Shown one piece after another: positions 4,203 to 39,276 of a DNA stretch of 39,276 bases; position 1 is the first letter of the stretch; every line of letters starts with the position of its first letter. The stretch is from a virus. The DNA lies in IMG/VR virus record IMGVR_UViG_3300025889_000309, positions 1 through 39,276 of that record; one strand, given 5' to 3'. The position numbers and the translations under genes were made by a program. A model generated the notes under the pieces. It was not told the DNA's origin. It was given only the letters and a program-made list of their open reading frames with translations, and made no database searches.

Positions 4203-4256
4203 GCAAGCCTGCCTTATGGCTTGCCAGTTAATTGCAACCCCCTTTGGAGGGGTTGC
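4203..4256 (+). promoter_or_regulatory. tandem hairpins before the terminase gene
   Basis: The first stem is GCAAGCC/GGCTTGC (4203-4209 with 4218-4224, eight-base loop). The second is GCAACCCC/GGGGTTGC (4234-4241 with 4249-4256, seven-base loop). Neither is followed by a proper T-run on the plus strand. They could be a terminator pair for stray transcripts, a structured late leader, or part of a packaging recognition site beside the terminase gene. Confidence 0.55.
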
Positions 4257-4309
4257 TTACTATTACTATTATTAATACTAATAGTATTATTAGGATAATT
4301 AGGTTTATT

Positions 4310-8611: not shown

Positions 8612-11600
8612 TGACTGTTGGACCATTTGATCAGCAGCAAAGTAGATTTGCTCAAGAGAGTCCATTTGGTGGACCACCAATAAGCGATCCTAGTGCTGCT
8701 GTAAAACGATCACTAAAGCCTAGTGTTGGAGAAATTAGTCCTGCACTTTATGCTGCTGGTGCTCGCACAAATTTAACTCGTGAAGAACGTAACCTTATTG
8801 AGAACTGGGCTGAAGTTAAAGGTACTCACGAAAAGCTAATGGCTATGGATAACAAAAAAGCTGCTGAAGCTTTTAATAAAATGGATCCAGAGTGGCAAGC
8901 AATTCTTGAAGGATACTACAAAGTTGACTACGCCAATAAGCCAAACCGTAACATGCTTATTGAAGATCCAGCTAAAAGAAAAATTCTTGGTTTAGATAAT
9001 GGTATAACCATTGGAGATTATCTTAAGTCTCCATTTCGACTTTTCTTTGCAGCATCAGAGCAATACTATGATTTGTATAATACTCCATATCGAATGGCTC
9101 AAGAAACTGTTATTAATCGCGAAAGTTTTTGGACTCGTTCTAATTTTGAAACTTCTTTTGATGGTGATTTTAACTACGATAATAATGAAGCAGAAAAACT
9201 AGTTAATAAACATGGCAAAGAGTTAAGCTTTGTTGCCATGCATTTACTTGCAGGTGCAACACCTGGTGAAATTATTGATGCTTGGGGTCCAAACGATGGA
9301 GCTATGCTTGAAGCAGTTAGCAAAGTATTTAATGAACCAGACACCATTACAAGTGTTATGGATGAATTTGATCGCGCACGTTTGTCTCCTGGTCGGAACG
9401 TTGCTCGTTGGATAAACAAGTCACTAGGTATTGAAGCGGAAGAAAATCAAACTTTATTTAAAGTTGGTTCTGGTGCTATTGATTTAGCATTTCAAATTTT
9501 TGGTGATCCACTAACATATGTAACTGGTGGACTTAATAATCTTGGTAAAGCGCAAAAGTTAACTCAAGCATTAAAGACTAGTCGCAATGTTGTTGAGCAT
9601 TTTGCTGATCCAGCTGTTGTAAAATACTTTAAAGGTTATGGCGAAAAAATTGGCGAGTACGCCAAGGCAATGGATGCTAAAGACGCAAAGACTGCTGCTA
9701 AATTAAAAGATCAAATTTCTAGGCGTTATGCACTGCATGGCACAGATGAAGAAATTGATTTATGGGCTAGAAAAGGAGTAGTTGATTATGACTCCTTTAA
9801 GGGTCAATTTACAAATGAAGATCCCCAAAACTTTGAAAGATTAATTTCTGGAAAAGTTGCTGGAACTTCATTTTCTAAAGAAGCTGCAGCTGTAGCTCGT
9901 CCAGGTCGAGAACTTACATTACGTGCAAAAGAAAAAGTACGAGAAGTTTTTGTTGGAAAACCTAATTGGGATAAATTGGACGAAGCTTCAACTCAAAAGT
10001 TGCTTGACGATTTATCAACTGGAAATATTACTGAAGTTGAAAAAGTAATTCAAGAAACTGCTGGTAAAGGCATTAACAAAGTACGTCAGCAAATTAGTTA
10101 CCAATTATCGCTACATCCTGGTAGCAAAGGTGTTTTTGTTTCTGACGATCGAGTAATAGATACCCTTGATATTGTTAGGCAACAAGCTAACTTAGCTTTT
10201 AAAGATAAAACACTTGCTCATCTTTTTGCTGAACACTTTAGAACTTCTACTCAAAAAGAAAGAATTTTTCTAAAAAGAAATCTTGATGAATTAATTTTGC
10301 GTAGTGCTGGTGTACATGGTTTGCCTGGCGGTAAAGAATTTATTAAAAAGCAACTTGATTTTCACTACGGTAAAGACTTTACTTACACTGCTGCTGATAA
10401 ACTTGAAGCTCCAAATCAATGGGGTGTAACAAATTTATCAACTGATGTCTTAGGTCCTTTGGGTCCTAGCCAAATGAAAGATATGATTGGTTCTCTTGAT
10501 TACCGCAGAATTTCTGAATTTGTTGCTTCACAACAGATTCGTTTAAAGAAAGAACTTAACGTAGCTAGTGCTTCTAGAATTATTGGTGGAGTTTATAACA
10601 GTAAGGTAACTGGCGACCTAATTGATCACTGGAGCCTTTTAACTCTTTATCCACAACTTGGTGTACGAACTGCTGTTGATGAAGGCTTCTTCTTTGCATT
10701 AACTGCAAAACTAGGAATGATTCACGAGTTTGCTCGCGCCCAAAAGTATGGCAATATATTTACTGCATACACTGGAGCTAAAGAGGGAACTGGTGCAGTA
10801 AAAAACATTTTTCAAATTGCTGCTACTAAGTTAACTGGTAAAGATGTTGGTGCTATAAGAACTATTGATCAAGCAACACGCGATGCCGTCTTTTTAGATA
10901 AGCAAATAAACTTTGCTGATTATGAAAATGCATTTGAAGCTGAACGAGCAGCACGTAAAGAATTATTTACAATAGCTTTAAATAGTAAGTACGGATCAAA
11001 ACTTACGCCTACTGAACGTGAATACTTGTTAGATCTTGCACTTTACAATCCTGGAGCAATGGCTGACTCAAGTGCAATAAAAATTATTGATGCATCAATG
11101 AATCGCCAAAATGTTCGTGGAGATAATCGAGTAATTTCAAAAAGCAATAATGATAAGTCTTTAGAAGAAATGAATGCTGCTGCTACTGGCAAGTATGATA
11201 TTCTCAGACTAAAAGATTTATCTGAAGCTGAACTTGACACAATCATGTTCAATAACTTTATTACAGGTTTTATTCAAGATGGTTTTAAATTTGGTGGTAA
11301 GACAGTTGCTGAAGCTGATCCAGCAAGATTGTTTATTGCTAACAACGGTTTAAGAACTGCAGAGGATTTTGAAAATGCCGTTAATCAATTCTTAAAAGGA
11401 ATTGGTTTTGAATTTAATGGCAAAATCTGGCAAGTCAATAACAAGAAGGTTGGAGACGTAAAGAAGTTTCTTGAATCCTCAACTCACTTTGAAAAGTTTG
11501 ATGGACTTCCAGATGTAGAAAAAGCAAGAGGATTTATTACAGATCTTTACACCGATCTTTATGTTCGTTTTCATGGCGATAGAAATAACTTTAATGAAGA

Positions 11601-13779
11601 ATTGCTTAAGGTATTCCAACCGTTTATTAATGGTTATGTAAAAGATCACAGACAAATTCTTAAACAAATGGATAAGAATAATGACTTTACGCATCCAAGT
11701 GGCAATATTAAAATTCCAAGTTACTCAAGTCTTGTCAAAAATAATCGACCTAAAGAAGAAATTATTTCTGATTTAGATTTTGAATACGGTCTTGAAGCTA
11801 ACTACCGTAAATACGGTGATCGCATGTATGAAATGATGAGTCGTGCAAGTGATGACTTATACCGTAACGCTTCTGTCCAAGCTCACTACATGGTATTCCG
11901 TAAAGAGCAATCCGTAAGCGAAGGTTTGTACGCAGCAAAAATAACTAAAGATTTAATTGCTCAGGGCATGGATCCAAAAAAGGCTAAGAAGCAAGGTTAC
12001 GAAGTTGCTACTAGGTTTTACACTGACCGAGCAATGACTCGTGCAACTAATCAAGTTCTTAAGTATGCTGATAATCCAGAAATCAGAAGTGTTTTTGCTT
12101 ACAACGTACGAACAGTTGGTCGTTTTTATCGTGCTGTAGAAGATTTTCATCGTCGTTTATTTAGACTAGTTAAAGAAAACAAGCTAGATACAATTTACCG
12201 TATGCGTTTATTGTCTACTGGACTTAATGCTTTTGGTGATGTTCACGAAGATCAAAATGGCGAAAAATATGCTGTGCTTCCAATGGATGATGTTATTTAT
12301 GGTGCAGTAGATGGAACTCTTCGCATGTTAACTGATGGTAAAGTAGGTGTTGGTCAACCATTATTTAATGACATTACCTTTAATATAACTGCAATGAATC
12401 CATCATTCCAAACTGATGCTGGTGTTCCGTATCTTTCTGGTCCTGCTGGTTCTCTTTCTGTACTAGCTGTTAAGTCTTTGCTTGGAAAGTTTGATGGTCT
12501 TGCTAACACTGCTGAAGATTTAGATCAGTGGACACTAGGAACAATGGGTGACAACGTAACTGTTCGTAGTGCAATTGTTCCAAAGTTTGTTAATAATATT
12601 TGGAAGATGCTTTCTCCAGATGAACGTGATCAGCAAGAAGTTTCTGCTTATGTTCAGGCACTTGCTTACAATCAAGCAAATGGTTATGGAATTGATCCGC
12701 TTGAATATGCAAATGATAAAGCAGGTTTAGACGAAGCAAAGCGTAAGTATCTTGCTGACGTTAAAATTTCTGCACACAATATCATTGTTACTCGTGCATT
12801 GCTTGGCATGATTCTTCCAATGTCTGTCCAAACTAAAGATACAAAAGATTTGCCAGAGTACCTAAAGGAAAATGGCGTAGTTAGCATGAAGGCAAGCTTC
12901 TACGAATTACTTGATGAAATTAAACTTAAGTATCCAGACGTAGAAGATCCTTACGAACTTGCCTATGCAACTTGGGCTGGTGAAAATCCTGGCAAGGTTG
13001 TTTATCTTGTTTCCACTAATCAAGAAGGCGTTAAGCCTCTTGTTAAGTACTCTAATGAAATGCAAGACTGGGCTATTACTAATAAGAATGACATTGAAAA
13101 GTATGGCAATGGTGCTTTACTTTTTGCTCCAAATACTGGAGAATTTTCTCCTGGTGCATACAAGTGGGCAGTAGCTGCTGGTCTTGTAAATAAAATTCCA
13201 GGTGACAAGAGTGTATCTCAATACATTGAGGATTACTACGAAAGTGTAATGCTTCAAGAACACGCTAATGATTACTATAACATTGGTGAAAGAGAAGAAG
13301 AAGACCTTCGCAACATTCCGTTTACAAATACACAATTACGTAGGGCAGCATTAGATGCTTATACAAAATTACGTGAACAAAAAATGCTTGGTGTACCTGG
13401 TTTAGATGATTACATTAAAGGCGATGTAGCTAATTCAGATGCTTCTAATTTTGTTCAATCTGCTTATAACTACGCCAACTCTGAAGGTTCTGCGGTTAAA
13501 CCAGAAACAAGAGATAAAATTAATCAGGCATATCAAATATTTAATGAGTTTATGGAGTATGCAAATTACATTAATACTCTAGATCCTTCTGGCGCATCAG
13601 ATCTAAAAAGAATCGAAAAAGAAAAAGCTAAAGCAAAAATTCAAGAACTTGTTAATTCCGATACAACAAAAGTTCTTGAGCAGTACTACAAGTATGGATT
13701 ATTAAAACTAATGAATGCTAAGTCTCGCGATGCACAACCAGGAATTTCAAGAAATGTTGTTAAGAAAGTGGTAAATTAA
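8611..13779 (+). CDS. giant virion protein (1722 residues), probable internal/ejection protein
   Basis: This is the largest gene, about 13% of the window, starting at a GTG that overlaps the previous stop. The sequence is helical and charged, with hydrophobic stretches such as SGAIDLAFQIFGDPLTYVTG near residue 290 and a tract around residues 680-700 (DHWSLLTLYPQLGVRTAVDE). I find no lysozyme, protease or transferase motif with certainty. Size and composition recall podovirus internal virion proteins that leave the head with the DNA, but those usually lie downstream of the capsid gene. Here it lies between portal and capsid. A tape measure is unlikely because other long-tail genes are absent. 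Confidence 0.75.
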   Translation: MTVGPFDQQQSRFAQESPFGGPPISDPSAAVKRSLKPSVGEISPALYAAGARTNLTREERNLIENWAEVKGTHEKLMAMDNKKAAEAFNKMDPEWQAILEGYYKVDYANKPNRNMLIEDPAKRKILGLDNGITIGDYLKSPFRLFFAASEQYYDLYNTPYRMAQETVINRESFWTRSNFETSFDGDFNYDNNEAEKLVNKHGKELSFVAMHLLAGATPGEIIDAWGPNDGAMLEAVSKVFNEPDTITSVMDEFDRARLSPGRNVARWINKSLGIEAEENQTLFKVGSGAIDLAFQIFGDPLTYVTGGLNNLGKAQKLTQALKTSRNVVEHFADPAVVKYFKGYGEKIGEYAKAMDAKDAKTAAKLKDQISRRYALHGTDEEIDLWARKGVVDYDSFKGQFTNEDPQNFERLISGKVAGTSFSKEAAAVARPGRELTLRAKEKVREVFVGKPNWDKLDEASTQKLLDDLSTGNITEVEKVIQETAGKGINKVRQQISYQLSLHPGSKGVFVSDDRVIDTLDIVRQQANLAFKDKTLAHLFAEHFRTSTQKERIFLKRNLDELILRSAGVHGLPGGKEFIKKQLDFHYGKDFTYTAADKLEAPNQWGVTNLSTDVLGPLGPSQMKDMIGSLDYRRISEFVASQQIRLKKELNVASASRIIGGVYNSKVTGDLIDHWSLLTLYPQLGVRTAVDEGFFFALTAKLGMIHEFARAQKYGNIFTAYTGAKEGTGAVKNIFQIAATKLTGKDVGAIRTIDQATRDAVFLDKQINFADYENAFEAERAARKELFTIALNSKYGSKLTPTEREYLLDLALYNPGAMADSSAIKIIDASMNRQNVRGDNRVISKSNNDKSLEEMNAAATGKYDILRLKDLSEAELDTIMFNNFITGFIQDGFKFGGKTVAEADPARLFIANNGLRTAEDFENAVNQFLKGIGFEFNGKIWQVNNKKVGDVKKFLESSTHFEKFDGLPDVEKARGFITDLYTDLYVRFHGDRNNFNEELLKVFQPFINGYVKDHRQILKQMDKNNDFTHPSGNIKIPSYSSLVKNNRPKEEIISDLDFEYGLEANYRKYGDRMYEMMSRASDDLYRNASVQAHYMVFRKEQSVSEGLYAAKITKDLIAQGMDPKKAKKQGYEVATRFYTDRAMTRATNQVLKYADNPEIRSVFAYNVRTVGRFYRAVEDFHRRLFRLVKENKLDTIYRMRLLSTGLNAFGDVHEDQNGEKYAVLPMDDVIYGAVDGTLRMLTDGKVGVGQPLFNDITFNITAMNPSFQTDAGVPYLSGPAGSLSVLAVKSLLGKFDGLANTAEDLDQWTLGTMGDNVTVRSAIVPKFVNNIWKMLSPDERDQQEVSAYVQALAYNQANGYGIDPLEYANDKAGLDEAKRKYLADVKISAHNIIVTRALLGMILPMSVQTKDTKDLPEYLKENGVVSMKASFYELLDEIKLKYPDVEDPYELAYATWAGENPGKVVYLVSTNQEGVKPLVKYSNEMQDWAITNKNDIEKYGNGALLFAPNTGEFSPGAYKWAVAAGLVNKIPGDKSVSQYIEDYYESVMLQEHANDYYNIGEREEEDLRNIPFTNTQLRRAALDAYTKLREQKMLGVPGLDDYIKGDVANSDASNFVQSAYNYANSEGSAVKPETRDKINQAYQIFNEFMEYANYINTLDPSGASDLKRIEKEKAKAKIQELVNSDTTKVLEQYYKYGLLKLMNAKSRDAQPGISRNVVKKVVN

Positions 13780-17298: not shown

Positions 17299-18300
17299 AT
17301 GGCTTTTACAGGTCTATCGGGTGGTTCTGCTGGTACTAATGGTGGTCTTGGTGGTGGCGCATACGCTTCCGCTAACAACGTTGGTGCCTTCACCCCATCA
17401 AACGGTGCTGGTCTAGTTCAGAAGGCGTACGATCGTCTTATTGAATTTGAACTACGCTCAACCCCATTGCTACGTTCAGTAGCAGACAAGAAACCAGCTC
17501 GTCAGAGCATGCCAGGTTCTTCTGTAGCTCTACAGATCTACAATGACTTGGCAAAGGCTACTTCAGAACTATCTGAAGAAGTCGATCCATCTGCAGTAGC
17601 ACTTGGTACTCCAGATATCGTTACCATTACCCTAAAGGAATACGGTAACGCTACTCTAGTAACCAAGAAGCTTGGTCTTATGTCTCTTGCAGACGTAGAT
17701 CCAGCTGTTGCTAACATCATTGCATACAACATGGCTGATAGCATTGATGATCTAGCACAGACTGCACTGCTTACAGGTACTAACGTACTGTACAGTGGAG
17801 ATGCTACTGCTACTAACGAAGTTACTGCAGCAGATACTATGTCTGCAGCTGAAATTCGTAAGGCTGTAGCTAAGTTGCGTAGCAACAAGGCTAATGGTCG
17901 TAAGGGTTCACTATACTGGTGTGGTATTCACCCAGAAGTTTCCCACGACCTTCGTGCTCAAACTGGTGCTGCTTCGTGGCGTAACCCACACGAGTACCAG
18001 AGCAACGATGCAATCTGGGCTGGCGAAATTGGTCAGTTTGAAGGTGCATACTTTATTGAGTCTCCTCGTCTGTACACTGCTACAGATGGCGACACCTCTG
18101 CAAAGGTATACCGCACCTTTATCTGTGGACAGCAAGCACTTGCTGAAGCAGTAGCAGAAGAGCCACACGTAGTTGTTGGTCCAGTTGTTGACCGCTTGAT
18201 GCGTCACCGTCCAATTGGATGGTACGGCGTTCTTGGTCACGCTGTATACCGCAACGAAGCTCTATACCGCATCGAGTCTGGTTCTAGCATCGCTAGCTAA
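17299..18300 (+). CDS. major capsid protein (N4-gp56-like, HK97 fold)
   Basis: The 333-residue protein has a glycine-rich, flexible N-terminal 45 residues and then a long stretch that resembles the N4-gp56 family: EEVDPSAVALGTPDIVTITL, then VTKKLGLMSLADVDPAVANI, then a C-terminal region with GPVVDRLMRHRPIGWYGVLG. AAAGGA precedes the start. Codons here are visibly more G/C-ending and regular than in adjacent genes, as is usual for the most highly expressed late gene. It forms the icosahedral shell after scaffold-guided assembly. A stable UUCG-capped hairpin follows. Confidence 0.9.
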   Translation: MAFTGLSGGSAGTNGGLGGGAYASANNVGAFTPSNGAGLVQKAYDRLIEFELRSTPLLRSVADKKPARQSMPGSSVALQIYNDLAKATSELSEEVDPSAVALGTPDIVTITLKEYGNATLVTKKLGLMSLADVDPAVANIIAYNMADSIDDLAQTALLTGTNVLYSGDATATNEVTAADTMSAAEIRKAVAKLRSNKANGRKGSLYWCGIHPEVSHDLRAQTGAASWRNPHEYQSNDAIWAGEIGQFEGAYFIESPRLYTATDGDTSAKVYRTFICGQQALAEAVAEEPHVVVGPVVDRLMRHRPIGWYGVLGHAVYRNEALYRIESGSSIAS

Positions 18301-19167: not shown

Positions 19168-20474
19168 TGCCAGACTACACAGTCATTATTGAAGAAGAAG
19201 TTACCGCTACTACTGTTACTATTGAAGAGACTGTTACTGACATTATCCTTGGTGAAGAAGTTACACAGGAAACTGTAGTCATTGTTGACAATGCTCAAGG
19301 TCCACAAGGAACTCAAGGACCAGCTGGACCTACTGGTCCACAGGGTCCACAAGGCGTACAAGGTCCGACTGGAGAAACTGGACCTCAAGGAATCCAAGGC
19401 GTTAAGGGTGACACGGGTGACGCAGGACCACAAGGTATACAAGGTCCTCAAGGAGACACAGGGGCAACAGGAGCGACTGGAGCAACAGGAGCGACTGGAC
19501 CGCAGGGTCCCCAGGGTGAACAAGGCATCCAAGGTATACAGGGCTTACAAGGCGATACAGGACCTCAGGGACCTATTGGAGAGACAGGACTTCAAGGACC
19601 TAAGGGAGACACTGGAGATACAGGTCCCCAAGGTATACAAGGAGAGACTGGTCTACAAGGACCACAGGGAATCCAGGGTGATACTGGTCCTCAAGGTATT
19701 CAGGGTGAGACAGGTCCACAGGGACCTCAAGGTATTCAAGGTATCCAAGGTGAAGTAGGACCACAAGGTCCTCAGGGAGATACTGGTTTAACTGGACCAG
19801 AAGGACCTCAAGGTCCTCAGGGCATCCAAGGTATTCAAGGTGATACTGGACCTGAAGGTCCTCAAGGACCGCAAGGTATTCAGGGTATTCAAGGAATACA
19901 GGGAGAAGTTGGACCTCAGGGTCCACAGGGTATACAGGGAGAAACTGGTGATACTACATTTTACTACCAAGCATCTCCTCCTACAAGTGGAACTGTATCT
20001 AATGGTACTGTTTGGGTTGATAGTGACTCTGATGTTCCAACCGCTGGAGAAACCACAGCATTTAGACTTTATCAATCTTCAGCGCAATCTATTGCAACAG
20101 CAACTAACACCGCACTTCTTTTTGACTCTGAAGATTTAGACACAGATAACGGTCATTCAGTTGCAACAGATACAAGTCGCTATACCGCAACAGTAGCAGG
20201 GTGGTATTTTGTTTCTGGTACTGTGCAATTTGCCTTCAATGCTACTGGCAACCGACTTGCAACCATTCAGAAGAATGGAACAACCAGTATTAACCAAACA
20301 GGTAGGTCCTCATCTTCCAGTTCAAACACAATGGGATTACAAGTTAACGGGCTAGTTTACTTAAACGGAACTACAGATTATGTAGAACTTATTACATGGC
20401 AAAATTCAGGAGTAAGTTTGAATACCTTAACAGCAAACCCTAGTTATTTTGAAGGATTTTGGGTGAGGTCATAA
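19167..20474 (+). CDS. collagen-like tail fibre with C1q-like head
   Basis: The 435-residue protein has a short beta N-terminus rich in Thr, Val and Glu (1-44), then 73 unbroken Gly-X-Y triplets (45-263), dominated by GPQ, GIQ, GDT and GET, and then a 170-residue beta domain. That domain, with [11 protein letters not shown] ... [13 protein letters not shown] ... [18 protein letters not shown], matches the jelly-roll pattern of C1q/TNF-like heads. Trimeric collagen rods with C1q heads are known in Bacillus exosporium (BclA) and in phages. The head is the likely receptor-binding or trimer-nucleating part. No hydroxylation is implied; bacterial collagen helices do without it. Confidence 0.92.
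19299..19955 (+). repeat. tandem Gly-X-Y coding repeat (73 triplets)
   Basis: A nine-base periodicity around GG(N)CC(N)CA(A/G) runs through 657 bases and encodes residues 45-263 of the fibre. Near-identical blocks such as the run of four GAT triplets near residue 100 and the GPQGIQG units recur throughout. Such DNA can change length by slippage or recombination, altering fibre reach. Synonymous variation between units is substantial, so the array is not a very recent expansion. Confidence 0.9.
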
Positions 20475-21553
20475 TGGCTAAGAAAACATATGTTACGCCA
20501 GATGCTGGTGCTACTTGGGTGCAAGTTGCTAGTGAAACTACTGACTTAAGTGCTTATGTAGAAAAAACTGGCGATACTATGACAGGTGATTTAACTACTT
20601 CTGGCATAATTCGTGCAGACTCTGATGGTCCTGACGGTGGAATGGTAATGCGCCGTTGGACTGGTGGTAGTACCTATACAAGTCTTGCCACTAACGGAAT
20701 GACTGGCAATGAGTACCTTATGATTTCTGGTACTGGTGGAACATATGTCAGTGCTAGTGCTGGTGGAGATGTATACATTAGACCTAACGCTAATACTTCT
20801 GGCTATCAACTTAAAGTTGATGCTGCTGGAGCGCATACTTTAGGGGGTGCGCTTGACTTAAGTTCTACCCTTAACGCTGGGGCTGTGCTTGCTGGTGGCT
20901 CGCTTGGAAGTGCAGGAAAAGTATCTGGTTCTTTAGCAAACCAAGGTTTAGGATTTTTTAGCACTTCTAGTTTTTCAACTGCTACGGCTTCGGGCGGTAT
21001 TGCTCTTTACGCTCAACGACTTCAAGACGGTGGGGTTTTAGCCCTTGTCTCTGGAACTAGCACAGAGGGTACTATTTCAATTTCTGGAACAACCACTACT
21101 TATGGAAGTTTTTGTGGAGCGCACTGGTCACAGTTTAAGGGAATTACTAGACCAGATATTCTTCCTGGAACTGTAGTTGAAACCATTGATGAAATGTGTG
21201 AGTGGTGGGATGAAGAAGGTGTTCTTCAACCTAATGACCAACTTGCAAAAGTTAAAGTAAGTGACACACCAGAATCAAAAGCGGTATACGGAGTATTCCA
21301 ACGCTATGACGATGAAGAAGGTGGAGTCAACGATATAATGGTTGCCTCCATTGGTGCTTGGCTATGTCGCATACAGGCTGGTGAAATCATAGAGGTAGGG
21401 GATTTACTAGACTCTGCTGGTAATGGTTGTGCCAAGGTTCAGAGCGATGACATTATGCGCTCACGTACCATTGCTAAAGTAACTTCAACAATACCTTATG
21501 CAACTTATGAAGATGGTTCATTTGTTGTACCAGTAACACTACATTGCGGATAG
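20474..21553 (+). CDS. tail fibre with C-terminal chaperone/G2-peptidase-like domain
   Basis: The ATG at 20474 shares a base with the previous stop (TAATG) and has GAGG upstream, so I prefer it to 20459. The N-terminal part has the fibre motif VEKTGDTMTGDLTTSG, the middle is a Gly/Ser/Thr-rich beta region, and the last 130 residues (AHWSQFKGITRPDILPGTVV ... ASIGAWLCRIQAGEIIEVGD ... LLDSAGNGCAKVQSDD) match a domain common on the ends of aquatic phage fibres that resembles intramolecular chaperone (G2 peptidase-type) domains. It probably trimerises the fibre and may be autocleaved; I cannot point to a cleavage site. Confidence 0.85.
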   Translation: MAKKTYVTPDAGATWVQVASETTDLSAYVEKTGDTMTGDLTTSGIIRADSDGPDGGMVMRRWTGGSTYTSLATNGMTGNEYLMISGTGGTYVSASAGGDVYIRPNANTSGYQLKVDAAGAHTLGGALDLSSTLNAGAVLAGGSLGSAGKVSGSLANQGLGFFSTSSFSTATASGGIALYAQRLQDGGVLALVSGTSTEGTISISGTTTTYGSFCGAHWSQFKGITRPDILPGTVVETIDEMCEWWDEEGVLQPNDQLAKVKVSDTPESKAVYGVFQRYDDEEGGVNDIMVASIGAWLCRIQAGEIIEVGDLLDSAGNGCAKVQSDDIMRSRTIAKVTSTIPYATYEDGSFVVPVTLHCG

Positions 21554-21560
21554 GAAAATA

Positions 21561-21659
21561 ATGGCTTGTAGAACAGGGTGCCCAACACAGGACTGTGAGA
21601 GTTACGCAGACTGCTGCAAGGGTGTAAGTATAAATAAAAGTAGTCTGAGAGTTAACTAA
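21561..21659 (+). CDS. 32-residue cysteine micro-protein, truncated paralogue of the next gene
   Basis: AGGA lies six bases before the ATG and the TAA shares a base with the next ATG. The product starts MACRTGCPTQDCESYADC, very like the next protein's MACRTGCSTQDHDSWGDC. It has six cysteines in 32 residues. It ends where the longer paralogue continues, so it is a truncated copy or a cut-down functional form. Metal binding or disulphide bonding is suggested by the cysteine spacing. Confidence 0.7.
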   Translation: MACRTGCPTQDCESYADCCKGVSINKSSLRVN

Positions 21660-21925
21660 TGGCTTGTAGAACTGGATGTTCCACTCAAGATCATGACTCT
21701 TGGGGAGATTGCTTAAGAGCTTCTAACATACAGATGTCAACTGGTGATGCTAATGGTGAGTTAGTTGATAACGGTTGGACTAATAAAAAATGGGACAACG
21801 AATTAAAAGCTTACCGTGATGCTCGTGCTCAGGGTATACAACCAGATGGAACTTCTACTGCTCAAATTCAAAAAGCAATAGATGTAAGCAATAAGACAGG
21901 ACACGCATATGGCTCAGCCCTCTAA
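21659..21925 (+). CDS. 88-residue 'CRTGC' family protein
   Basis: It opens with MACRTGCSTQDHDSWGDCLR, a cysteine-tagged N-terminus that I recognise as recurring in aquatic phage genomes without known function. The rest (NELKAYRDARAQGIQPDGTS ...) is helical and ends with TGHAYGSAL. Its start is coupled to the 32-residue paralogue and its end overlaps the next start by 17 bases. The place between fibre and tail genes suggests a virion or morphogenesis role. Confidence 0.8.
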   Translation: MACRTGCSTQDHDSWGDCLRASNIQMSTGDANGELVDNGWTNKKWDNELKAYRDARAQGIQPDGTSTAQIQKAIDVSNKTGHAYGSAL

Positions 21926-22133
21926 GAAACCAGCAATAGGTAAGAAGAAACCAAAAGTTAATGCCAAAGCGTTAACGGCAACACGTAAGTCAGACAAGTT
22001 AACTAATCCTAAGTCTCCAAGAAATCTTCGTGATATTAAAATCACCAAAGAACGCTTAGCGTACGAAAAGGGATTTAACGATGCTATGAAAAAGAAGAAT
22101 AGCAAAAAGATTTTAGGTGGAGGTACATACTAA
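21909..22133 (+). CDS. lysine-rich 74-residue basic protein
   Basis: The start lies inside the end of the CRTGC gene, and the stop shares a base with the next ATG (TAATG). Nearly a third of residues are Lys or Arg, with little acid. The N-terminal half is disordered (KKPAIGKKKPKVNAKAL) and the C-terminal half helical (ERLAYEKGFNDAMKKKN). DNA or RNA binding inside the virion is a reasonable guess from charge alone. Confidence 0.75.
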   Translation: MAQPSKKPAIGKKKPKVNAKALTATRKSDKLTNPKSPRNLRDIKITKERLAYEKGFNDAMKKKNSKKILGGGTY

Positions 22134-22285
22134 TGTGCGCTACCTGTGGATGTAACCACATCAACTACCAACATGAGATGCCTTCAATGCCAGGTTCGGC
22201 TAAAGGTATTGACAAAGTAAATTACAACATGCCAAAGGTACCAGCAGTTCCTGCTATGCCTAAGTCAACCAAGAAAGGTAAGTAA
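22133..22285 (+). CDS. 50-residue protein with CxxCxC start and Pro/Met-rich tail
   Basis: The ATG overlaps the previous stop by one base. It starts MCATCGCNHINYQHEMP, giving cysteines at 2, 5 and 7 and a histidine at 9, a likely metal-binding cap. The tail repeats short Met-Pro units (MPSMP, NMPKVP, AMPK) and ends in lysines. I know no function. It belongs to the same cassette style as its neighbours: a cysteine tag or a basic tail on a very small protein. Confidence 0.7.
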   Translation: MCATCGCNHINYQHEMPSMPGSAKGIDKVNYNMPKVPAVPAMPKSTKKGK

Positions 22286-22287
22286 TT

Positions 22288-22959
22288 ATGGCAAAGCCAA
22301 AGCCTAAGGGCTGGAACTCAATGAGCAAAGCCAAGCAAGAAGCTTGGAAGAAAGCTAACTTTGATAGCTCAACTAAAGTAACTCAAGCACAACTAAATAA
22401 ACTACGTGCTGAAAAAACTCCTGAAAAAGCTATTGCTAAATATAAGAATGATCCAGCAATGCGTGAAGCACTTAATCGTTTTTATGGTAAAGCTCGTGTA
22501 GGTAGTGTAACTGCTACTCCTTCTACTCCTTCTGGTCCTAAAGGTAAAGGTCCAGGCTACACACGTCCAAAGCCACCACAGGGTAAAGGTCCAGGTTATA
22601 CACGTCCTAAGGGTCCAAATGCTACTACTAAAACTCCAAAGGCTCCAAGTGTTGGAAAGCAGGTAGGTGCTGCTGCAGCTGGCGTAGGTGTTGCTGCTTT
22701 AGCTGCTCGTGGTATGACAAAAATGGACAAGAAGGATGTAGCTAATGCTAAGACTGCTGCAGGTAAGCATAGAAAGACTGCATCTGGTCCAAAGCATAAG
22801 ATGACTGATCGTCCATCTAATAGTGGTAAAGCTGCAATGAAGACAGCAGCTAAGCACAAAGCTACCAGAATGGGTGTAACTAATAAGATGAAGGCACAAG
22901 GAACAAAAATTATGTCTTCTGCTGGTAGTCGTTACAATCAAGCACGACGAGGTAAGTAA
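22288..22959 (+). CDS. 223-residue basic Ala/Lys/Pro-rich protein
   Basis: The helical N-terminal 75 residues begin with GWNSMSKAKQEAWKKANFD. Two copies of GKGPGYTRPK follow in a Pro/Gly-rich linker, then a hydrophobic glycine/alanine helix (VGAAAAGVGVAALAARG) and a very basic histone-like tail with KTAAGKHRKT and KTAAKHKATR. The tail looks suited to DNA packing or crossing; the hydrophobic helix could insert in a membrane. No family is recognised. Confidence 0.75.
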   Translation: MAKPKPKGWNSMSKAKQEAWKKANFDSSTKVTQAQLNKLRAEKTPEKAIAKYKNDPAMREALNRFYGKARVGSVTATPSTPSGPKGKGPGYTRPKPPQGKGPGYTRPKGPNATTKTPKAPSVGKQVGAAAAGVGVAALAARGMTKMDKKDVANAKTAAGKHRKTASGPKHKMTDRPSNSGKAAMKTAAKHKATRMGVTNKMKAQGTKIMSSAGSRYNQARRGK

Positions 22960-22961
22960 TC

Positions 22962-23249
22962 ATGGTAGCCAAGAAGGATCCACGTCTAGCACGTGCTGGT
23001 GTTTCTGGCTACAACAAGCCAAAGCGTACACCTAACCATCCAAAGAAATCACATGTAGTTGTGGCTAAAGTTGGTGATCAGGTTAAGACTATTCGTTTTG
23101 GTCAGCAGGGTGTGTCTGGCTCTCCTAAGAAATCAGGAGAGTCAGCATCCTATGCTGCACGTAGACGGTCATTCAAAGCACGTCATGCAAAGAATATTTC
23201 AAAAGGTAAACTATCCGCTGCATACTGGGCAGATAAGGTTAAATGGTAA
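22962..23249 (+). CDS. 95-residue basic conserved phage protein
   Basis: The signature KSHVVVAKVGDQVKTIRFGQ followed by FKARHAKNISKGKLSAAYWA is one I recognise as widespread in phages, especially aquatic ones, with no known role. The N-terminus (KRTPNHPKKSH) is basic and disordered. Its stop shares bases with the next start (TAATGG). The compact beta start and helical end suggest a folded DNA- or RNA-binding domain. I do not assign an activity. Confidence 0.8.
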   Translation: MVAKKDPRLARAGVSGYNKPKRTPNHPKKSHVVVAKVGDQVKTIRFGQQGVSGSPKKSGESASYAARRRSFKARHAKNISKGKLSAAYWADKVKW

Positions 23250-23644
23250 TGGCTTATACCAATCCTGCTAAGCGAGAAGCATTAAAGAAAAAGATTATGG
23301 CTAGCTCCAAAGGAGGTAAGCCTGGTCAATGGTCTGCTCGTAAAGCACAACTACTAGCACAAGAATATAAAAAAGCTGGTGGTGGTTACTCAGGTCCTAA
23401 GACTTCTAAGCAGAAGTCACTATCAAAGTGGACTAAAGAAGAGTGGGGTACTAAGTCAGGTAAGCCAAGTACACAGGGCAAGAAGGCTACTGGTGAACGT
23501 TACCTACCTAAGAAAGCCAGAGAAGCACTGAGCAAAGAAGAATACAAAAAGACTTCTGACGCTAAACGCAAAGGCACTAAAGCTGGCAAACAATTTGTTA
23601 AACAACCAAAAACTATTGCAAAGAAAACGGCAAGGTATAGATAA
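23249..23644 (+). CDS. 131-residue basic protein of the 'GERYLP' type (DUF5872-like)
   Basis: I use the ATG at 23249, which shares a base with the previous stop, over 23243. Conserved blocks are YTNPAKREALKKKIMASSKG, then GGKPGQWSARKAQLLAQEYK, then SKWTKEEWGTKSGKPS, then GERYLPKKAREALSKEEY. They resemble proteins annotated DUF5872 in large aquatic viruses and phages; that number is from memory. It is strongly basic. Function is unknown; the company it keeps suggests an internal virion protein. Confidence 0.75.
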   Translation: MAYTNPAKREALKKKIMASSKGGKPGQWSARKAQLLAQEYKKAGGGYSGPKTSKQKSLSKWTKEEWGTKSGKPSTQGKKATGERYLPKKAREALSKEEYKKTSDAKRKGTKAGKQFVKQPKTIAKKTARYR

Positions 23645-25549
23645 ATGGCTATTAATACCATGGCAGCAACACCTGAAAATGCGGGTTACTTAGCTGAAAT
23701 TGGTGAATTTCTTTTTGCAACAGAGACAATTAAAAAAATTTCCAAGGGCGAAGGAACTTGGGGAGATGCTGCACTTGTAGGTGTAACTGCTGCTAGTTTT
23801 TTTATTGCTCCTGCTAAAATTATGCAGTTAAGTGGTAAAGCCTTAAATGCTGTAATTAAAACAACAAGTAAAACACTTGCTGATGATGCAGTAAAAAATA
23901 CAATGTCTGTTGCTGCTAAGCGAGCTGCAGCTAAAACTTTAGATGATGCTCTTACTATAAAGCGTCAAGGCTACATACCTGAAAAACCAACGCAACGTTT
24001 TAGTGGAGAGTTTGATCAACCAGTTGAACGTTTAGGTCGTACTGGCATGGGAGAACCTACTCCTCCTTATCAGGTAACAGAACGAACTGTTCCTACTCCA
24101 GCAGCTAAGGCTGAAAAAGGAATGGTTGAAAAGAAGTACAGTCGCACTTCGGATGAAGATTATAATTACTATGATCGTGACATAGATCCTTTTCAGGCTG
24201 CTGAAGATGCTATTGCAATGCGTGGTGGTAAAAGAGCAGCTAAACCCGTAGAGCCTGTAAGAAAACCTGTAACTGAAGAAGAACTTTTAGCCGAATCTAA
24301 ATTAAAAGAAATTCAAGGTTCTCAATATTATGATAAAACTAAATTTAGTCAAGATGAAATTGATTATCGGATTTCTCAATTAACTACAGAAGAAACAAAA
24401 CTTCTTAAGCGTAAGCCAGGGGAATCAGCTAAAAGTCATAAGCAAAGATTAGAAGATTATGTACGTGGTGGAGATATTGAAGATTTAACTCCAGTTCCTT
24501 ATGCCACAATAGCCATGAGAAAAACTGGTGAATATACTGATGATGAAATTAAAGCATCAGTTGCTGCACTTCGTACATTTAATAAAACTAAAACTGAACT
24601 AGATGCTAAAGAAGTAACTTATCTTTATCTTGCTATTAGAAAATTACTTAAAGATGAAAGATTAAAGAAGGGTACAGTTCCTGCCGATATTTTAAAATAC
24701 TTTAAGACTCATTTTCCAGAACTTAAAAAAGAATTTAGAAGCAAGGTTGTTAATACAGCAGAAGGCAAAGCAATACTCCGCAAGGTTGAAAAAGAAATGC
24801 CCGCTAACCCTAAGTCTAAAGATGTCTTACTTAGGTATGAAGAAAGTTTAGCCGACAATGCTAAGCCTGGTGAATTAAAAGCTTTTGTTGATGAAGTAGT
24901 AGATGATACACCTATTACAACTACGGCTAAAGGACCTACTCGCACTGGAAGAGCACCAGTAAAATTAAAAACAAAAATACCAGACGATCTTATAAAAAGT
25001 TATTCATTTGATGATGATTTAGCTAAGCATAATTTAAAAAGAGCTGCTGCTCTTTTGGCTGAAAAATCAAAGTTAAATGCATTTAATGCAACAAATGCTA
25101 CTAAATTAAAAACAGCAAAGCCAGAAGAAATCTCAAAAATTAAACAATCAACTGCAAGAAATAAAAAAATCATAGACAGAATTAATGATGAGCTTAGAAG
25201 GTCGCGACAGATACTTTCTCGTGAAGAGCAAATAGAAGCACAAAACATTGCTGATGAAGTTACTAAACGTAATCTTGCAAAGCAAAGAACAAAGTCAGAA
25301 AAAACTAATTTATCTGAAGCATTTAGTGATAAGCCAACAAAACTAAATCGACCATCAACCGTTCCTGGTAAGGGTGGAGAAACCGCAAAGCTTACAAGGC
25401 AAGGAAAGATTGCTAAAGCAAGAGCAGAAGTAGAAAGACTTAGAAAGCAATGGTCAGATACTCCTGCAGCAGATACAGAAGCTAGAAGCAGGATTGCTCA
25501 AGAAGCTAAAAAGTTTGCAGACTATATTAAAAAGTTGGAAGGTAAATAA
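23645..25549 (+). CDS. 634-residue lysine-rich protein, end of the basic cassette
   Basis: It starts two bases after the stop of the basic gene before it and overlaps the next gene by one base. Residues 40-70 are hydrophobic (WGDAALVGVTAASFFIAPAK), with an amphipathic helix after them. The rest is helical, highly charged, Lys/Glu/Arg-rich and mostly coiled, with a disordered Pro-rich part around residue 130-160. The layout suits an ejected or internal virion protein that contacts both membrane and DNA. No enzymatic motif is seen. Confidence 0.75.
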   Translation: MAINTMAATPENAGYLAEIGEFLFATETIKKISKGEGTWGDAALVGVTAASFFIAPAKIMQLSGKALNAVIKTTSKTLADDAVKNTMSVAAKRAAAKTLDDALTIKRQGYIPEKPTQRFSGEFDQPVERLGRTGMGEPTPPYQVTERTVPTPAAKAEKGMVEKKYSRTSDEDYNYYDRDIDPFQAAEDAIAMRGGKRAAKPVEPVRKPVTEEELLAESKLKEIQGSQYYDKTKFSQDEIDYRISQLTTEETKLLKRKPGESAKSHKQRLEDYVRGGDIEDLTPVPYATIAMRKTGEYTDDEIKASVAALRTFNKTKTELDAKEVTYLYLAIRKLLKDERLKKGTVPADILKYFKTHFPELKKEFRSKVVNTAEGKAILRKVEKEMPANPKSKDVLLRYEESLADNAKPGELKAFVDEVVDDTPITTTAKGPTRTGRAPVKLKTKIPDDLIKSYSFDDDLAKHNLKRAAALLAEKSKLNAFNATNATKLKTAKPEEISKIKQSTARNKKIIDRINDELRRSRQILSREEQIEAQNIADEVTKRNLAKQRTKSEKTNLSEAFSDKPTKLNRPSTVPGKGGETAKLTRQGKIAKARAEVERLRKQWSDTPAADTEARSRIAQEAKKFADYIKKLEGK

Positions 25550-26448
25550 TGGCAACATTTGGTCAAATGACTGATGAGGTATCACGTAAGTTAGCAGGTT
25601 TTACACTGCGTCAAGATCGTCAGACACATCTTACTGCTGCCGTTAATGCAACGGCAACCAGTATTACTGTTGCTTCTACACAAAATATTTCAAGTGGTGT
25701 AATTCAGATTGATGATGAACTTATTTATGTAGACTCGTATGACCGTAACTCTAATGTGCTTAGCATTCCTCCTTACGGTAGAGGGTATAATGGTACATCT
25801 GCTGCTACCCATCAGAATGGTGCACGTGTAATTATCTCTCCTACATTCCCTACTGTAGACATTAAGGGAGCAATTAATGAAACTCTTGAAGCTACCTTCC
25901 CAGATTTGTACACAATTGCTACACATACATTCTCTTACTCTCCTGCTAAAACTACTTACGCATTACCAAATGAAGTTGAAAACGTTCACTCTGTTTCATT
26001 TGAAACTACTGGTCCTTCTAAAGAGTGGTTACCTATTCGGAGTTACAGGGTTGATGCTTCAGCTAATGTTGATACTTTTAATTCTAGAAATAGCATAAGC
26101 ATTTACTCTGGCGTTGAGCCAGGTCGTACTGTACAAGTTTCTTACAGTGCTGCGCCTACTGTAATGGATACTGATGATGATGATTTTGAAACTGTAACTG
26201 GTTTACCATCATCTTGTAAAGATGTAATTGTTCTTGGTGCTTCTGCACGACTAGCTTCGTTTGTAGATCCAGGTCGTTTGACTTTTGGTTCTGCTGAATC
26301 TGATCAGCAATCACAGATTGCAGGTCGTGCATATGGTGCAGGTACAAATACTTCTAAGTACCTTCTTGCTCTTTACGAAAAGCGACTTGCAGAAGAAAGC
26401 AGAAAACTTAATGATCGTAATCCAATTCGCACTAGATTCACAAGATAG
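25549..26448 (+). CDS. tail adaptor-like protein (299 residues)
   Basis: The N-terminus is helical (FGQMTDEVSRKLAGF), followed by a beta module with TATSITVASTQNISSGVIQI and DELIYVDSYDR, which is a common small phage beta domain, and then a central and C-terminal region with FPTVDIKGAINETLEATFPD and a last helix. Helical start plus head-tail connector-like length, directly upstream of fibre and nozzle-like genes, favours a portal-to-tail adaptor. The similarity is loose, so another tail component is possible. Confidence 0.65.
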   Translation: MATFGQMTDEVSRKLAGFTLRQDRQTHLTAAVNATATSITVASTQNISSGVIQIDDELIYVDSYDRNSNVLSIPPYGRGYNGTSAATHQNGARVIISPTFPTVDIKGAINETLEATFPDLYTIATHTFSYSPAKTTYALPNEVENVHSVSFETTGPSKEWLPIRSYRVDASANVDTFNSRNSISIYSGVEPGRTVQVSYSAAPTVMDTDDDDFETVTGLPSSCKDVIVLGASARLASFVDPGRLTFGSAESDQQSQIAGRAYGAGTNTSKYLLALYEKRLAEESRKLNDRNPIRTRFTR

Positions 26449-37241: not shown

Positions 37242-37392
37242 GGTATTTTTTATTCCTATCATAGAAGTCTTCTTTAGCTCTACTAAGCATCATGTCTTCA
37301 ATGTGTGCTTCGATACGATCATAGCATGACTCACAGACATCTTCATCTTCTAGCTTGTATACTTCTTCTATGTCTAATTGGCAGCATTCCAT
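37228..37392 (-). CDS. 54-residue protein with cysteine pairs
   Basis: The ATG at 37392 shares a base with the WhiB stop (TAATG) and has AAAGGA upstream, so I use it rather than 37425. MECCQLDIEE begins with a CC pair, and VCESCYDRIEAH has CxxC followed by His. A zinc knuckle of four ligands is likely. The rest is a charged helix. Function is unknown; it lies between WhiB and the nuclease. Confidence 0.72.
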   Translation of the reverse strand: MECCQLDIEEVYKLEDEDVCESCYDRIEAHIEDMMLSRAKEDFYDRNKKYHDNY

Positions 37393-37691
37393 TACTTTAT
37401 TCCTTTCAAGAACCCTGAGGTCCATGGTTGTTCTAGTTTAATATTATACTTCTTTCTCCACTGACGGCGTTCATACACAGACATACCACCCCAGAATCCC
37501 CACTCTTCGTGCTTAATAGCCCAATCTCTACACTTATCAAGAACATCACAGTTTCCACAGATTTTCCTCAGCTGTGGATAAACATTACTTTTAGCCCATG
37601 CATTGTCTTCATTTTCTTCTCCTACTGGATAAAAGAAATTAGTATCCATACCATCACATGCTGCTGTCTCATATGAATTAATTTGGAACAC
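37392..37691 (-). CDS. WhiB-family iron-sulphur transcription factor
   Basis: The 99-residue protein has the four cluster cysteines C12, C45, C48 and C54 (CGNCDVLDKC) and the family loop GFWGG at 65-69, followed by a basic tail (ERRQWRKKYNIK) that would touch DNA. WhiB proteins hold a [4Fe-4S] cluster and bind region 4 of the host main sigma factor, changing promoter choice. GTG start, GGAG nine bases upstream, 14-base overlap with the gene before. In mycobacteriophage TM4 a WhiB protein blocks host septation and superinfection, so a host-takeover role is likely here. Confidence 0.95.
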   Translation of the reverse strand: MFQINSYETAACDGMDTNFFYPVGEENEDNAWAKSNVYPQLRKICGNCDVLDKCRDWAIKHEEWGFWGGMSVYERRQWRKKYNIKLEQPWTSGFLKGIK

Positions 37692-37890: not shown

Positions 37891-38384
37891 GATGCTTGGT
37901 ACTCAATGCTGTAGTTCCAGTAATTTTCTGGCGTAATCTCATCAAGCAATTCTGTTAGTTGTTGATGTGTTTCTTCAACGTCTCGCCAGTAGTACTCATC
38001 AATCTCATACCCACCAAAGAAGAATCCTGGTGTTGGTGGCAGTAGTTCGTGAGCTAACTCTGTTGATCTTGTGTCAATTAATTGACCACAAATACTATGT
38101 AGTTCAACTAATCTATCTCTGCTTACTGGTATACGCTGGCACTCATCTACTCCATCACCACAAGTTTCTACAAACCATCCGTGAATTTGGTTAGCTTTAC
38201 GCCAATAAATAGCAGTCCATTCAACTGATACTGATGATGCGATATCATCTTTAACCTTGATACCTGAAGCTTCGATAACATTGTTGTATCTAGAATCTTC
38301 TGTGCGAACTAGATCCATTCCAACTCGTTGGTAATCGTATTGAGCAATACGTTCACTTACATTTAGGTACATATCAAGACCCAT
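37884..38384 (-). CDS. 'MGLDMYL' conserved phage protein
   Basis: The 166-residue product begins MGLDMYLNVSERIAQYDYQR, has YWRKANQIHGWFVETCGDGV and DECQRIPVSRDRLVELHSIC, then ELLPPTPGFFFGG before an acidic end. I recognise this family as widespread in phages of many hosts, with no known function; some database names for it (such as phosphoglycerate kinase) have no basis. AGGAG precedes the ATG, inside the end of the DUF932 gene. Confidence 0.85.
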   Translation of the reverse strand: MGLDMYLNVSERIAQYDYQRVGMDLVRTEDSRYNNVIEASGIKVKDDIASSVSVEWTAIYWRKANQIHGWFVETCGDGVDECQRIPVSRDRLVELHSICGQLIDTRSTELAHELLPPTPGFFFGGYEIDEYYWRDVEETHQQLTELLDEITPENYWNYSIEYQASW

Positions 38385-39276
38385 TGCTTACTCCTAATAG
38401 TTGTAGGGCACGTGACTTTACGGCTATGTCTGTGCCGAGAATCATCTTGCCTGCTTGCTTGCTATAGTCTTTACTAAAGTGATCGGTTGCTTCCACGATA
38501 GCTTGGAATGCACCGAACTTGGTGTTCTTAATGTTATGTTGCGTGTCGGTTTCACCGATCCATACGTTCCATGCATTAAGTCTATTTCTTTCTACTCTTG
38601 TCTTACTTGTACGTTCACCTGCACTAAGCATTTCATATGGTGAGAACTCAATCTTGCTAGGTAATGCATACACTCGCTTGATAAAGTTCTTGAACTCTTC
38701 GTTACTGAATTCAATTGAACGTAAGTAAGAAGATACTGTTGCATACTTCTGAACATCTTCATTCATAATTCTAAATGCTTTTCTAATATCATCTGCATTG
38801 ATACTGCTATTAGGACTATGCTTAACACGGTAGTAAATACCTTTAGCTTTACCACTCATCATGGCTGCATTGATTTGATTAGTGCAGCTTAGACGATTGA
38901 CAACTGGTGTCATTTGGAATGGCATACTACCATCGTGTGATGTACGTGCAATTACATATGCATTATGTGGATCATCACCAACTGTAATGTTAGCTGGTAG
39001 TTCAATGGTTGCCCACACTACATTGCCACCTTTAAGTTCTCCTGCTGCACCGTAACGTGCATCGCTATTCTTAACGATGTCGTCAAGGCATGAGAAGATC
39101 TCACTGTTTTGTAGTACTTTGTATCGTGAACCTACTACTGCTAATGGTTCAGCTCCAGCACCATTGTACTTAACTGTTGCATACCTATCTGGTACTTCAA
39201 CGTCTTGTGTTTCACCTTTAATAAATACATTTTCTAATGTAACTTTCCAGTCAAGTCCAGCTTGTACCATCAGGTC
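38374..39276 (-). CDS. DUF932 (phage/plasmid TIGR03299-like) protein, lacking N-terminus
   Basis: The frame is open to the right end, so the gene continues outside or at position 106. Typical features are AGLDWKVTLENVF, then AEPLAVVGSRYKVLQNSEIF, VWATIELPANITVGDDPHN, VNRLSCTNQINAAM and a C-terminal EFSPYEMLSAGERTSKTRVE. The family is common on plasmids and phages and lies close to replication or recombination genes; its role is unknown. Its joined length of about 322 residues is usual. An ATG at 39270 is internal, as homology starts before it. Confidence 0.85.
   Translation of the reverse strand, partial: DLMVQAGLDWKVTLENVFIKGETQDVEVPDRYATVKYNGAGAEPLAVVGSRYKVLQNSEIFSCLDDIVKNSDARYGAAGELKGGNVVWATIELPANITVGDDPHNAYVIARTSHDGSMPFQMTPVVNRLSCTNQINAAMMSGKAKGIYYRVKHSPNSSINADDIRKAFRIMNEDVQKYATVSSYLRSIEFSNEEFKNFIKRVYALPSKIEFSPYEMLSAGERTSKTRVERNRLNAWNVWIGETDTQHNIKNTKFGAFQAIVEATDHFSKDYSKQAGKMILGTDIAVKSRALQLLGVSNGS

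What the first reader, a model, noticed from the sequence alone, without database searches (positions are those of the whole stretch)
21561..25549. Cassette of cysteine-tagged and lysine-rich proteins between fibres and tail connectors
Eight consecutive genes, most coupled by 1-17 base overlaps: two CRTGC proteins, a CxxCxC protein, and five strongly basic proteins up to 634 residues, one with a hydrophobic Gly/Ala helix. None has a known function, though several belong to families that recur in aquatic phages. Charge and order suggest a set that condenses DNA in the head or conducts it across the envelope. It is the best candidate here for an undescribed system.
Basis: partly seen in the sequence, partly recalled or inferred. 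Interest (0 to 1): 0.62.

Follow-up and report, generated by a model that had tools for sequence, protein, structure and literature searches.

The report
Swappable basic-protein cassette in actinophages
This is a real, recurring row of small positively charged proteins in phages related to Streptomyces viruses, ending in a fast-evolving carrier protein whose relatives carry enzymes thought to disarm bacterial immunity, so it looks like cargo assembled late for the virus particle, although nobody has yet shown that any of these proteins is inside the particle.

Summary
The eight genes are real and lie where stated. Five neighbours (21909-23644) are basic (permutation p about 1e-4), but the 634-residue protein is not strongly basic (+4 net charges per 100 residues). 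The window is an actinophage whose capsid and adaptor resemble Streptomyces podophages (Beephvirinae).

In 104 complete relatives the Cys protein, a run of small basic genes and the adaptor recur in order. Streptomyces phages lack the basic run. At least 12 basic families occupy the run; two pairs never co-occur in it (KSHVVVAK/DUF6321; GERYLP/WDKPNP). Several recur, often adjacent, in unrelated cyano-, roseo- and pelagiphages.

There are two classes. The small proteins are strongly constrained (dN/dS 0.03-0.14; 0.07-0.21 for the 32-residue one). The 223- and 634-residue proteins evolve fast (0.43-0.63). Relatives of the 634-residue protein keep its N-terminus but end in NADAR, SLOG-like and DUF4326 domains, singly or combined; the window copy has none.

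Best reading: a late cargo module, nucleic-acid-binding proteins at packaging or head completion plus a polyvalent-type effector carrier. Condensation in the head is possible but unshown; conduction across the envelope has no support. No virion evidence exists, and annotation of two cyanophages leans against it.

The parts
21561..21659 (+). 32-aa CRTGC mini-protein with a C-x3-C-x4-C-x5-C pattern, a short paralogue of the N-terminus of the next gene
   Evidence: Near-invariant 31-32 aa ORF in more than 30 relatives, usually before the fibre gene there; dN/dS 0.07-0.21 where measurable.
21659..21925 (+). CRTGC protein, 88 aa, zinc-knuckle-like C-x3-C-x4-H-x5-C, phrog_10483
   Evidence: phrog_10483 E 4.6e-27; homologue of FlowerPower gp41 and 28 more Streptomyces phage records; dN/dS 0.03-0.07; CCHC form in 37 of 108 distinct members, other Cys/His arrangements in the rest.
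21909..22133 (+). 74-aa lysine-rich protein (+23 per 100)
   Evidence: Nine homologous ORFs in relatives, dN/dS 0.07-0.11.
22133..22285 (+). 50-aa CxxCxC protein with basic tail
   Evidence: 35 distinct homologues, Cys/His N-terminus and KKGK tail conserved; dN/dS 0.05-0.14; no match in isolate phages.
22288..22959 (+). 223-aa basic protein with Gly/Ala hydrophobic stretch, fast-evolving
   Evidence: B223-like family in relatives; dN/dS 0.43-0.62; hydrophobic stretch in about a quarter of members; no match in isolate phages.
22962..23249 (+). KSHVVVAK protein, 95 aa, phrog_7595
   Evidence: phrog_7595 E 2e-41; 48 isolate phage records; 27 invariant residues in 95 sequences; AlphaFold2 pLDDT 83, no PDB fold match.
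23243..23644 (+). GERYLP protein, 133 aa, a fusion of two families (phrog_17747 + phrog_14910); likely true start 23249
   Evidence: Both phrogs matched; encoded as two adjacent genes in CRP-603 gp74/gp73 and HTVC034P gp22/gp21; dN/dS 0.06-0.09; DUF5872 below cut-off, E 1.4e-3.
23645..25549 (+). 634-aa fast-evolving protein; conserved N-terminus with hydrophobic segment (residues about 42-60); relatives end in NADAR, SLOG-like or DUF4326 domains
   Evidence: N-terminus has no match in 50,697 isolate phage records; dN/dS 0.46-0.63.
25549..26448 (+). Head-tail adaptor (SU10-adaptor-like), downstream flank of the cassette
   Evidence: Pfam SU10_adaptor E 8.2e-7, phrog_7578 E 4e-102; homologue of FlowerPower gp43.
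20459..21553 (+). Fibre-like protein, upstream flank
   Evidence: phrog_10316 tail fiber, E 6.5e-5; ORF of about 355 aa in the same place in relatives.
17299..18300 (+). Major capsid protein that places the phage among Beephvirinae relatives
   Evidence: 53-54% identity to Streptomyces phage major capsid proteins.

Best explanation
The cassette is a late cargo module of actinobacterial podophages, made of two kinds of protein. (1) Small basic and Cys/His proteins (74, 50, 95 and 133 aa, with the two CRTGC proteins) under strong purifying selection. They most likely bind nucleic acid during DNA packaging or head completion and may stay with the packaged genome. (2) Two fast-evolving proteins with a hydrophobic stretch (223 and 634 aa). 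The 634-aa family looks like a carrier that is packaged and delivered with the DNA; relatives carry exchangeable NADAR, SLOG-like and DUF4326 domains at the C-terminus, predicted to process ADP-ribose signals or DNA ADP-ribosylation used in bacterial immunity. The window copy carries no such domain. Shown: gene order, family exchange, constraint, domain content of relatives. Inferred: DNA binding, packaging into the head, delivery into the host, counter-defence.
For: Late virion-gene neighbourhood, tight gene coupling and conserved order in 104 cassettes; 62% of 473 junctions overlap or abut. Two constraint classes. KSHVVVAK, GERYLP, DUF6321 and WDKPNP recur near head or packaging genes of unrelated phages: upstream of terminase in CRP-603, before scaffold and coat in KBS-S-2A, between gp4-like and gp10-like genes of a P22-like phage, between gp16 and gp17 in P-HM1, between capsid and gp11 in P-SCSP1q. 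Swappable domains in the 634-aa family: NADAR E 3e-31 to 2e-29 and DUF4326 7e-13; SLOG-like, phrog_768 DprA-like 6.5e-12, model pTM 0.84 with top PDB hit 3imk. Published analysis finds these domains fused together in DNA viruses and proposes that NADAR, Macro and Nudix proteins are often packaged into virions (PMC9503650).
Against: No virion proteomics for any close relative. In S-SM1 and S-CBS2 the DUF6321 and KSHVVVAK proteins are annotated hypothetical while neighbours are called structural. The S-SM1 proteome was mass-analysed, but its supplementary table could not be read; that S-CBS2 was analysed the same way is inferred from its wording. The KSHVVVAK proteins are far more conserved than plain charge neutralisation needs. 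The window's own 634-aa protein has no recognised enzyme domain. DNA binding is untested.
Confidence: 0.45

Rival explanations
1. The small basic proteins act only inside the infected cell, as late nucleic-acid-binding helpers of terminase or head assembly or as modulators of host nucleic acids, and are not in the particle.
For: The DUF6321 protein sits between small and large terminase genes in cyanomyoviruses and KSHVVVAK/GERYLP lie upstream of terminase in CRP-603. Annotated as hypothetical rather than structural in S-SM1 and S-CBS2. High sequence constraint.
Against: In this lineage the genes lie among fibre and adaptor genes, far from terminase at 4232-6202; small Lys/Arg-rich proteins are easily missed by trypsin-based mass spectrometry (general knowledge).
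Confidence: 0.3
2. The site is a permissive insertion hot spot between fibre and adaptor genes where unrelated small genes pile up, with no joint function.
For: Membership differs strongly between close relatives; 23 changes of the GERYLP/WDKPNP state on the adaptor tree; glycosyltransferases appear in the same stretch in other relatives.
Against: 71% of 401 ORFs of 40 aa or more in the stretch are above +10 per 100 against 4.4% of 987 other ORFs of the same loci; order is conserved and two family pairs are never together; the same pairs recur adjacent in unrelated phages.
Confidence: 0.15
3. Minor structural or cement proteins of the capsid or head-tail junction.
For: Position next to capsid and adaptor genes; constraint as strong as that of the adaptor.
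Against: Cassette-free relatives (Streptomyces phages) build particles without them; the family content of the run is exchangeable.
Confidence: 0.1

Closest known systems
Beephvirinae Streptomyces podophages (FlowerPower, Manuel, Abafar)
   Same: Same order capsid - fibre - CRTGC protein (gp41) - adaptor (gp43); capsid 53-54% identical.
   Different: Only one non-basic 172-aa gene, or nothing, between the CRTGC protein and the adaptor; no basic run.
Polyvalent proteins (Iyer et al. 2017, PMC5512222)
   Same: Relatives of the 634-aa protein combine unrelated enzyme-type domains and lie among late virion genes.
   Different: The window copy has no recognised enzyme domain; none of the published signature domains was found; packaging untested.
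Viral NAD+-ADP-ribose systems: SLOG, NADAR and DUF4326 fusions (PMC9503650)
   Same: The same three domains are fused in the 634-aa family.
   Different: Here they sit behind a shared N-terminus with no match in isolate phages, in phages of about 40 kb, where NADAR is said to be rare.
Internal head proteins and viral DNA-condensing proteins (T4 IPs/Alt, protamine-like core proteins)
   Same: Small, lysine-rich, late genes near head genes.
   Different: Several distinct, very conserved families in fixed order; presence in the head and DNA binding not shown.
DUF6321, DUF6496, DUF5872 and DUF5754 families of phages and algal giant viruses
   Same: Cassette members in relatives are DUF6321 (E 1e-20) and DUF6496 (E 1.6e-13); GERYLP resembles DUF5872 weakly.
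   Different: These DUFs have no function; KSHVVVAK reaches DUF6321 and DUF5754 only below cut-off.

Membership tests
Polyvalent proteins | Two or more disparate domains, usually enzymatic, in one polypeptide | tested here: not met
   Window 634-aa protein: no Pfam domain at E 0.01; the alignment ends before the enzyme region of relatives. Met in relatives L018, L025, L182, L188 and L189.
Polyvalent proteins | Encoded among late virion genes | tested here: met
   Directly upstream of the head-tail adaptor, downstream of capsid and fibres.
Polyvalent proteins | Packaged in the virion and injected | not testable with these tools
   Needs virion proteomics or an ejection assay.
DNA-condensing internal head proteins | Small, strongly basic, late-expressed | tested here: met
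   Four proteins at +19 to +23 per 100 and one at +10, all in the late operon direction.
DNA-condensing internal head proteins | Present in the capsid and bound to DNA | not testable with these tools
   No proteomics or binding data; annotation of S-SM1 and S-CBS2 leans against.
NADAR / NAD-ADPr counter-defence proteins | NADAR, SLOG or DUF4326 domain | tested here: not met
   Absent from the window copy; present in relatives at E 7e-13 to 3e-31, with an FRG-LSNM-TVEH-LIEGN-WGD-FWG motif in NADAR.
phrog_7595 (KSHVVVAK) | Profile match over full length | tested here: met
   E 2.1e-41, profile positions 3-96 of 96.
DUF5872 | Score above Pfam cut-off (27.5 bits) | tested here: not met
   19.7 bits, E 0.0014.
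Zinc-knuckle proteins (CRTGC family) | Conserved CCHC ligands that bind zinc | tested here: inconclusive
   C-x3-C-x4-H-x5-C in 37 of 108 distinct members, other Cys/His patterns in the rest; metal binding not testable.
T7-like internal virion (ejection) proteins | Homology to gp14/15/16 or known ejection proteins | tested here: inconclusive
   No match for the 634-aa protein in Pfam, PHROGs or PDB sequences; remote homology not excluded.

The most novel reading that the evidence does not exclude
A slot-organised phage nucleoprotein module: a set of interchangeable, highly conserved basic families, shared by unrelated aquatic phages and perhaps algal giant viruses, that organises the packaged genome and is built together with a delivered carrier whose C-terminal anti-immunity domain is swapped between phages.
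Probability: 0.2. Interest if true: 0.8.

Novelty: new variant of a known kind. Interest (0 to 1): 0.52.

Why it matters
Small basic families such as KSHVVVAK, DUF6321, DUF6496 and GERYLP are widespread unexplained genes of aquatic phages; DUF6321 alone is in 482 phage records. Showing that they form an ordered, exchangeable set beside head and packaging genes turns scattered unknowns into one testable system. The 634-aa family shows a phage lineage swapping ADP-ribose-related domains behind a common N-terminus, a direct handle on what such phages carry into actinobacterial cells.

Tried and rejected
One uniform condensing set up to 634 residues: rejected for the 634-aa protein (charge, domains, evolution rate).

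KSHVVVAK as ribosomal L24-like: the PDB sequence hit has E 0.0075, is composition-like, and the predicted structure found no PDB fold; not pursued. The search shows no relative, not that the fold is new.

KSHVVVAK and DUF6321 as proven homologues: only 19 columns align, probability 15%, though 42 of 95 members touch the DUF6321 profile weakly; left open.

KSHVVVAK as a general C-terminal tag on big proteins: PHROG positions suggested it, but in the loci only one convincing fusion was seen (L154, 226 aa).

PKVGKK/CxxC50 exclusivity as displacement: rejected, since independent contrasts show no opposing change (0 of 7), so it is a clade effect.

CRTGC matches to designed PPR proteins in the PDB: repeat-composition artefact. 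Conserved GK at protein ends: explained by the next gene's ribosome-binding site (GGTAA before the ATG), not a protein signal.

A two-sequence alignment using an arbitrary stretch of L010 was meaningless and is not used.
Full report
What the phage is. The window is a 39,276-base virus record. Its capsid protein is 53-54% identical to that of Streptomyces podophages of the Beephvirinae, and 71% to the metagenomic phage ct2KA10; one of these Streptomyces phages, Abafar, is a podovirus by microscopy. It encodes a WhiB regulator (E 6e-14), a collagen-like fibre, a terminase and an M23 peptidase. An actinobacterial host is therefore likely. A Streptomyces genome contig carries a distant relative.

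The observation. Eight ORFs are present at 21561-25549, coupled by short overlaps or gaps, each with a plausible ribosome-binding site. Of 53 window genes, six reach +10 net charges per 100 residues. Five of these are the consecutive genes 21909-23644 (permutation p 9e-5). The 634-aa protein is only +4 per 100, so the description of five strongly basic proteins up to 634 residues is partly wrong. All genes have homologues under purifying selection, including the 32-aa ORF, which recurs almost unchanged as a 31-32 aa ORF in more than 30 relatives.

The neighbourhood test. The adaptor, KSHVVVAK, 634-aa N-terminus and CRTGC queries returned about 250 loci. In the adaptor lineage the basic run follows the CRTGC protein, not the fibre or the adaptor as such: one clade has CRTGC, basic run, fibre, then adaptor. 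Of CRTGC loci with at least two genes downstream, 77 of 83 have a basic protein among the next three. ORFs of 40 aa or more in the run have a median of +19 per 100 and 71% exceed +10, against 4.4% elsewhere in the same loci. On an adaptor tree the presence of the run needs one change (support 91, with long-branch warnings), while its contents change 8 to 23 times. Streptomyces relatives have the CRTGC gene and the adaptor but no basic run.

Slots. In 104 complete, non-identical cassettes KSHVVVAK occurs in 78 and DUF6321 in 19, never together (Fisher p 2e-15). GERYLP occurs in 26 and WDKPNP in 52, never together (p 4e-10). These p values ignore relatedness. With independent contrasts on the tree, the partner moves the opposite way in about 4 of 5 and 3.8 of 8 pairs and never the same way, but with so few pairs the sign test gives 0.125. 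Functional interchange is thus suggested, not proven. A third apparent pair is a clade effect.

Outside this lineage. KSHVVVAK is in 48 and GERYLP in 20 of 50,697 phage records; ten hold both (hypergeometric p 4e-26, again ignoring relatedness). They are adjacent in CRP-603 and S-CRES1. DUF6321 and WDKPNP are adjacent in cyanophage MinM2. The window's GERYLP protein is a fusion of two families that are neighbouring genes elsewhere. Contexts are mostly late head or packaging regions: next to terminase, scaffold and coat, P22-like head-completion genes and between capsid and gp11.

Two classes of protein. Pairwise dN/dS is 0.03-0.14 for the 88-, 74-, 50-, 95- and 133-aa proteins, and 0.07-0.21 for the 32-aa one where it could be measured, close to the adaptor (0.07-0.12). 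It is 0.43-0.63 for the 223- and 634-aa proteins.

The 634-aa family. Its N-terminal 100 residues, with a conserved hydrophobic segment GVTAASFFIPPAKI, are shared by 17 of 18 distinct proteins from relatives and have no match in isolate phages. The C-termini differ: NADAR (L012, L019), SLOG-like (L010, L013, L187), SLOG-like plus NADAR (L018, L182), SLOG-like plus DUF4326 (L025, L189), a DprA-like match plus DUF4326 and NADAR (L188, 1194 aa), or none (the window, L014, L172, L176, L185, L199). NADAR and DUF4326 exceed Pfam cut-offs. The SLOG assignment rests on phrog_768 (DprA-like, E 6.5e-12), weak Pfam hits to SLOG families, and a model (pTM 0.84) whose top PDB match is 3imk, a putative molybdenum carrier, E 8e-3; 3imk as a cpYpsA-type SLOG protein is from general knowledge. 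Published work describes exactly these three domains fused in DNA viruses, proposes that they process ADP-ribose derivatives of bacterial immunity, and argues that NADAR, Macro and Nudix proteins are often packaged into virions (PMC9503650). NADARs remove ADP-ribose from guanine in DNA, phage ones included (PMC11543638, PMC11125620).

Structure. KSHVVVAK folds with fair confidence (pLDDT 83, pTM 0.68) as a helix, a beta hairpin and two helices; no solved structure matched, so the model gives no function. The CRTGC family shows a C-x3-C-x4-H-x5-C pattern in 37 of 108 distinct members and other Cys/His patterns in the rest, suggesting metal binding without proving it.

Mechanism and limits. The best-supported picture is a late module: constrained basic and Cys/His proteins that act on nucleic acid at packaging or head completion, plus a fast-evolving carrier that in relatives bears counter-immunity domains and is probably delivered with the DNA. 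DNA binding, presence in the particle and delivery are inferences. In S-SM1, whose particle proteome was measured, the DUF6321 protein is annotated hypothetical while a neighbour is called structural; S-CBS2 gp046 (KSHVVVAK) is treated likewise. This leans against packaging of the small proteins, though Lys/Arg-rich proteins are easily missed. The rival, in-cell packaging helpers, stays close behind.

Verdict. The cassette is real and, as far as the papers searched here show, undescribed as a unit. Its parts belong to known but functionless families, and its carrier resembles known polyvalent-type effectors without the window copy meeting that definition.

Noticed in passing
window 23243-23644: The GERYLP protein is a fusion of two families that are separate adjacent genes in most other phages; homologues suggest the true start is 23249.
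   Followed up: yes
L062, L066, L069, L082, L084 and relatives, between the collagen-like fibre and the adaptor: In the clade with the other gene order, one or two glycosyltransferase-like genes lie just before the adaptor, next to collagen-like fibres; judged from sequence only.
   Followed up: no
Cyanomyovirus genomes, e.g. L167 4560-5261 (P-HM1) and L168 3774-5261 (S-SM1): The DUF6321 domain is the C-terminus of the conserved T4-GC119 protein between terminase gp16 and gp17; no function is given in these records.
   Followed up: partly
window 8611-13779: A 1722-aa protein in the position of an internal virion or ejection protein with no match in Pfam or PHROGs.
   Followed up: partly
window 38374-39270 and 37392-37691 (minus strand): A DUF932 protein and a WhiB-type regulator in the early region; WhiB supports an actinobacterial host.
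   Followed up: partly
L265 (Streptomyces composti contig NZ_JAATEM010000008.1): A relative in a bacterial genome where the CRTGC gene is followed directly by the adaptor, showing the site without the basic run.
   Followed up: partly
L188 5001-8585: The longest relative of the 634-aa protein, 1194 aa, with DprA-like, DUF4326 and NADAR regions in one chain.
   Followed up: partly
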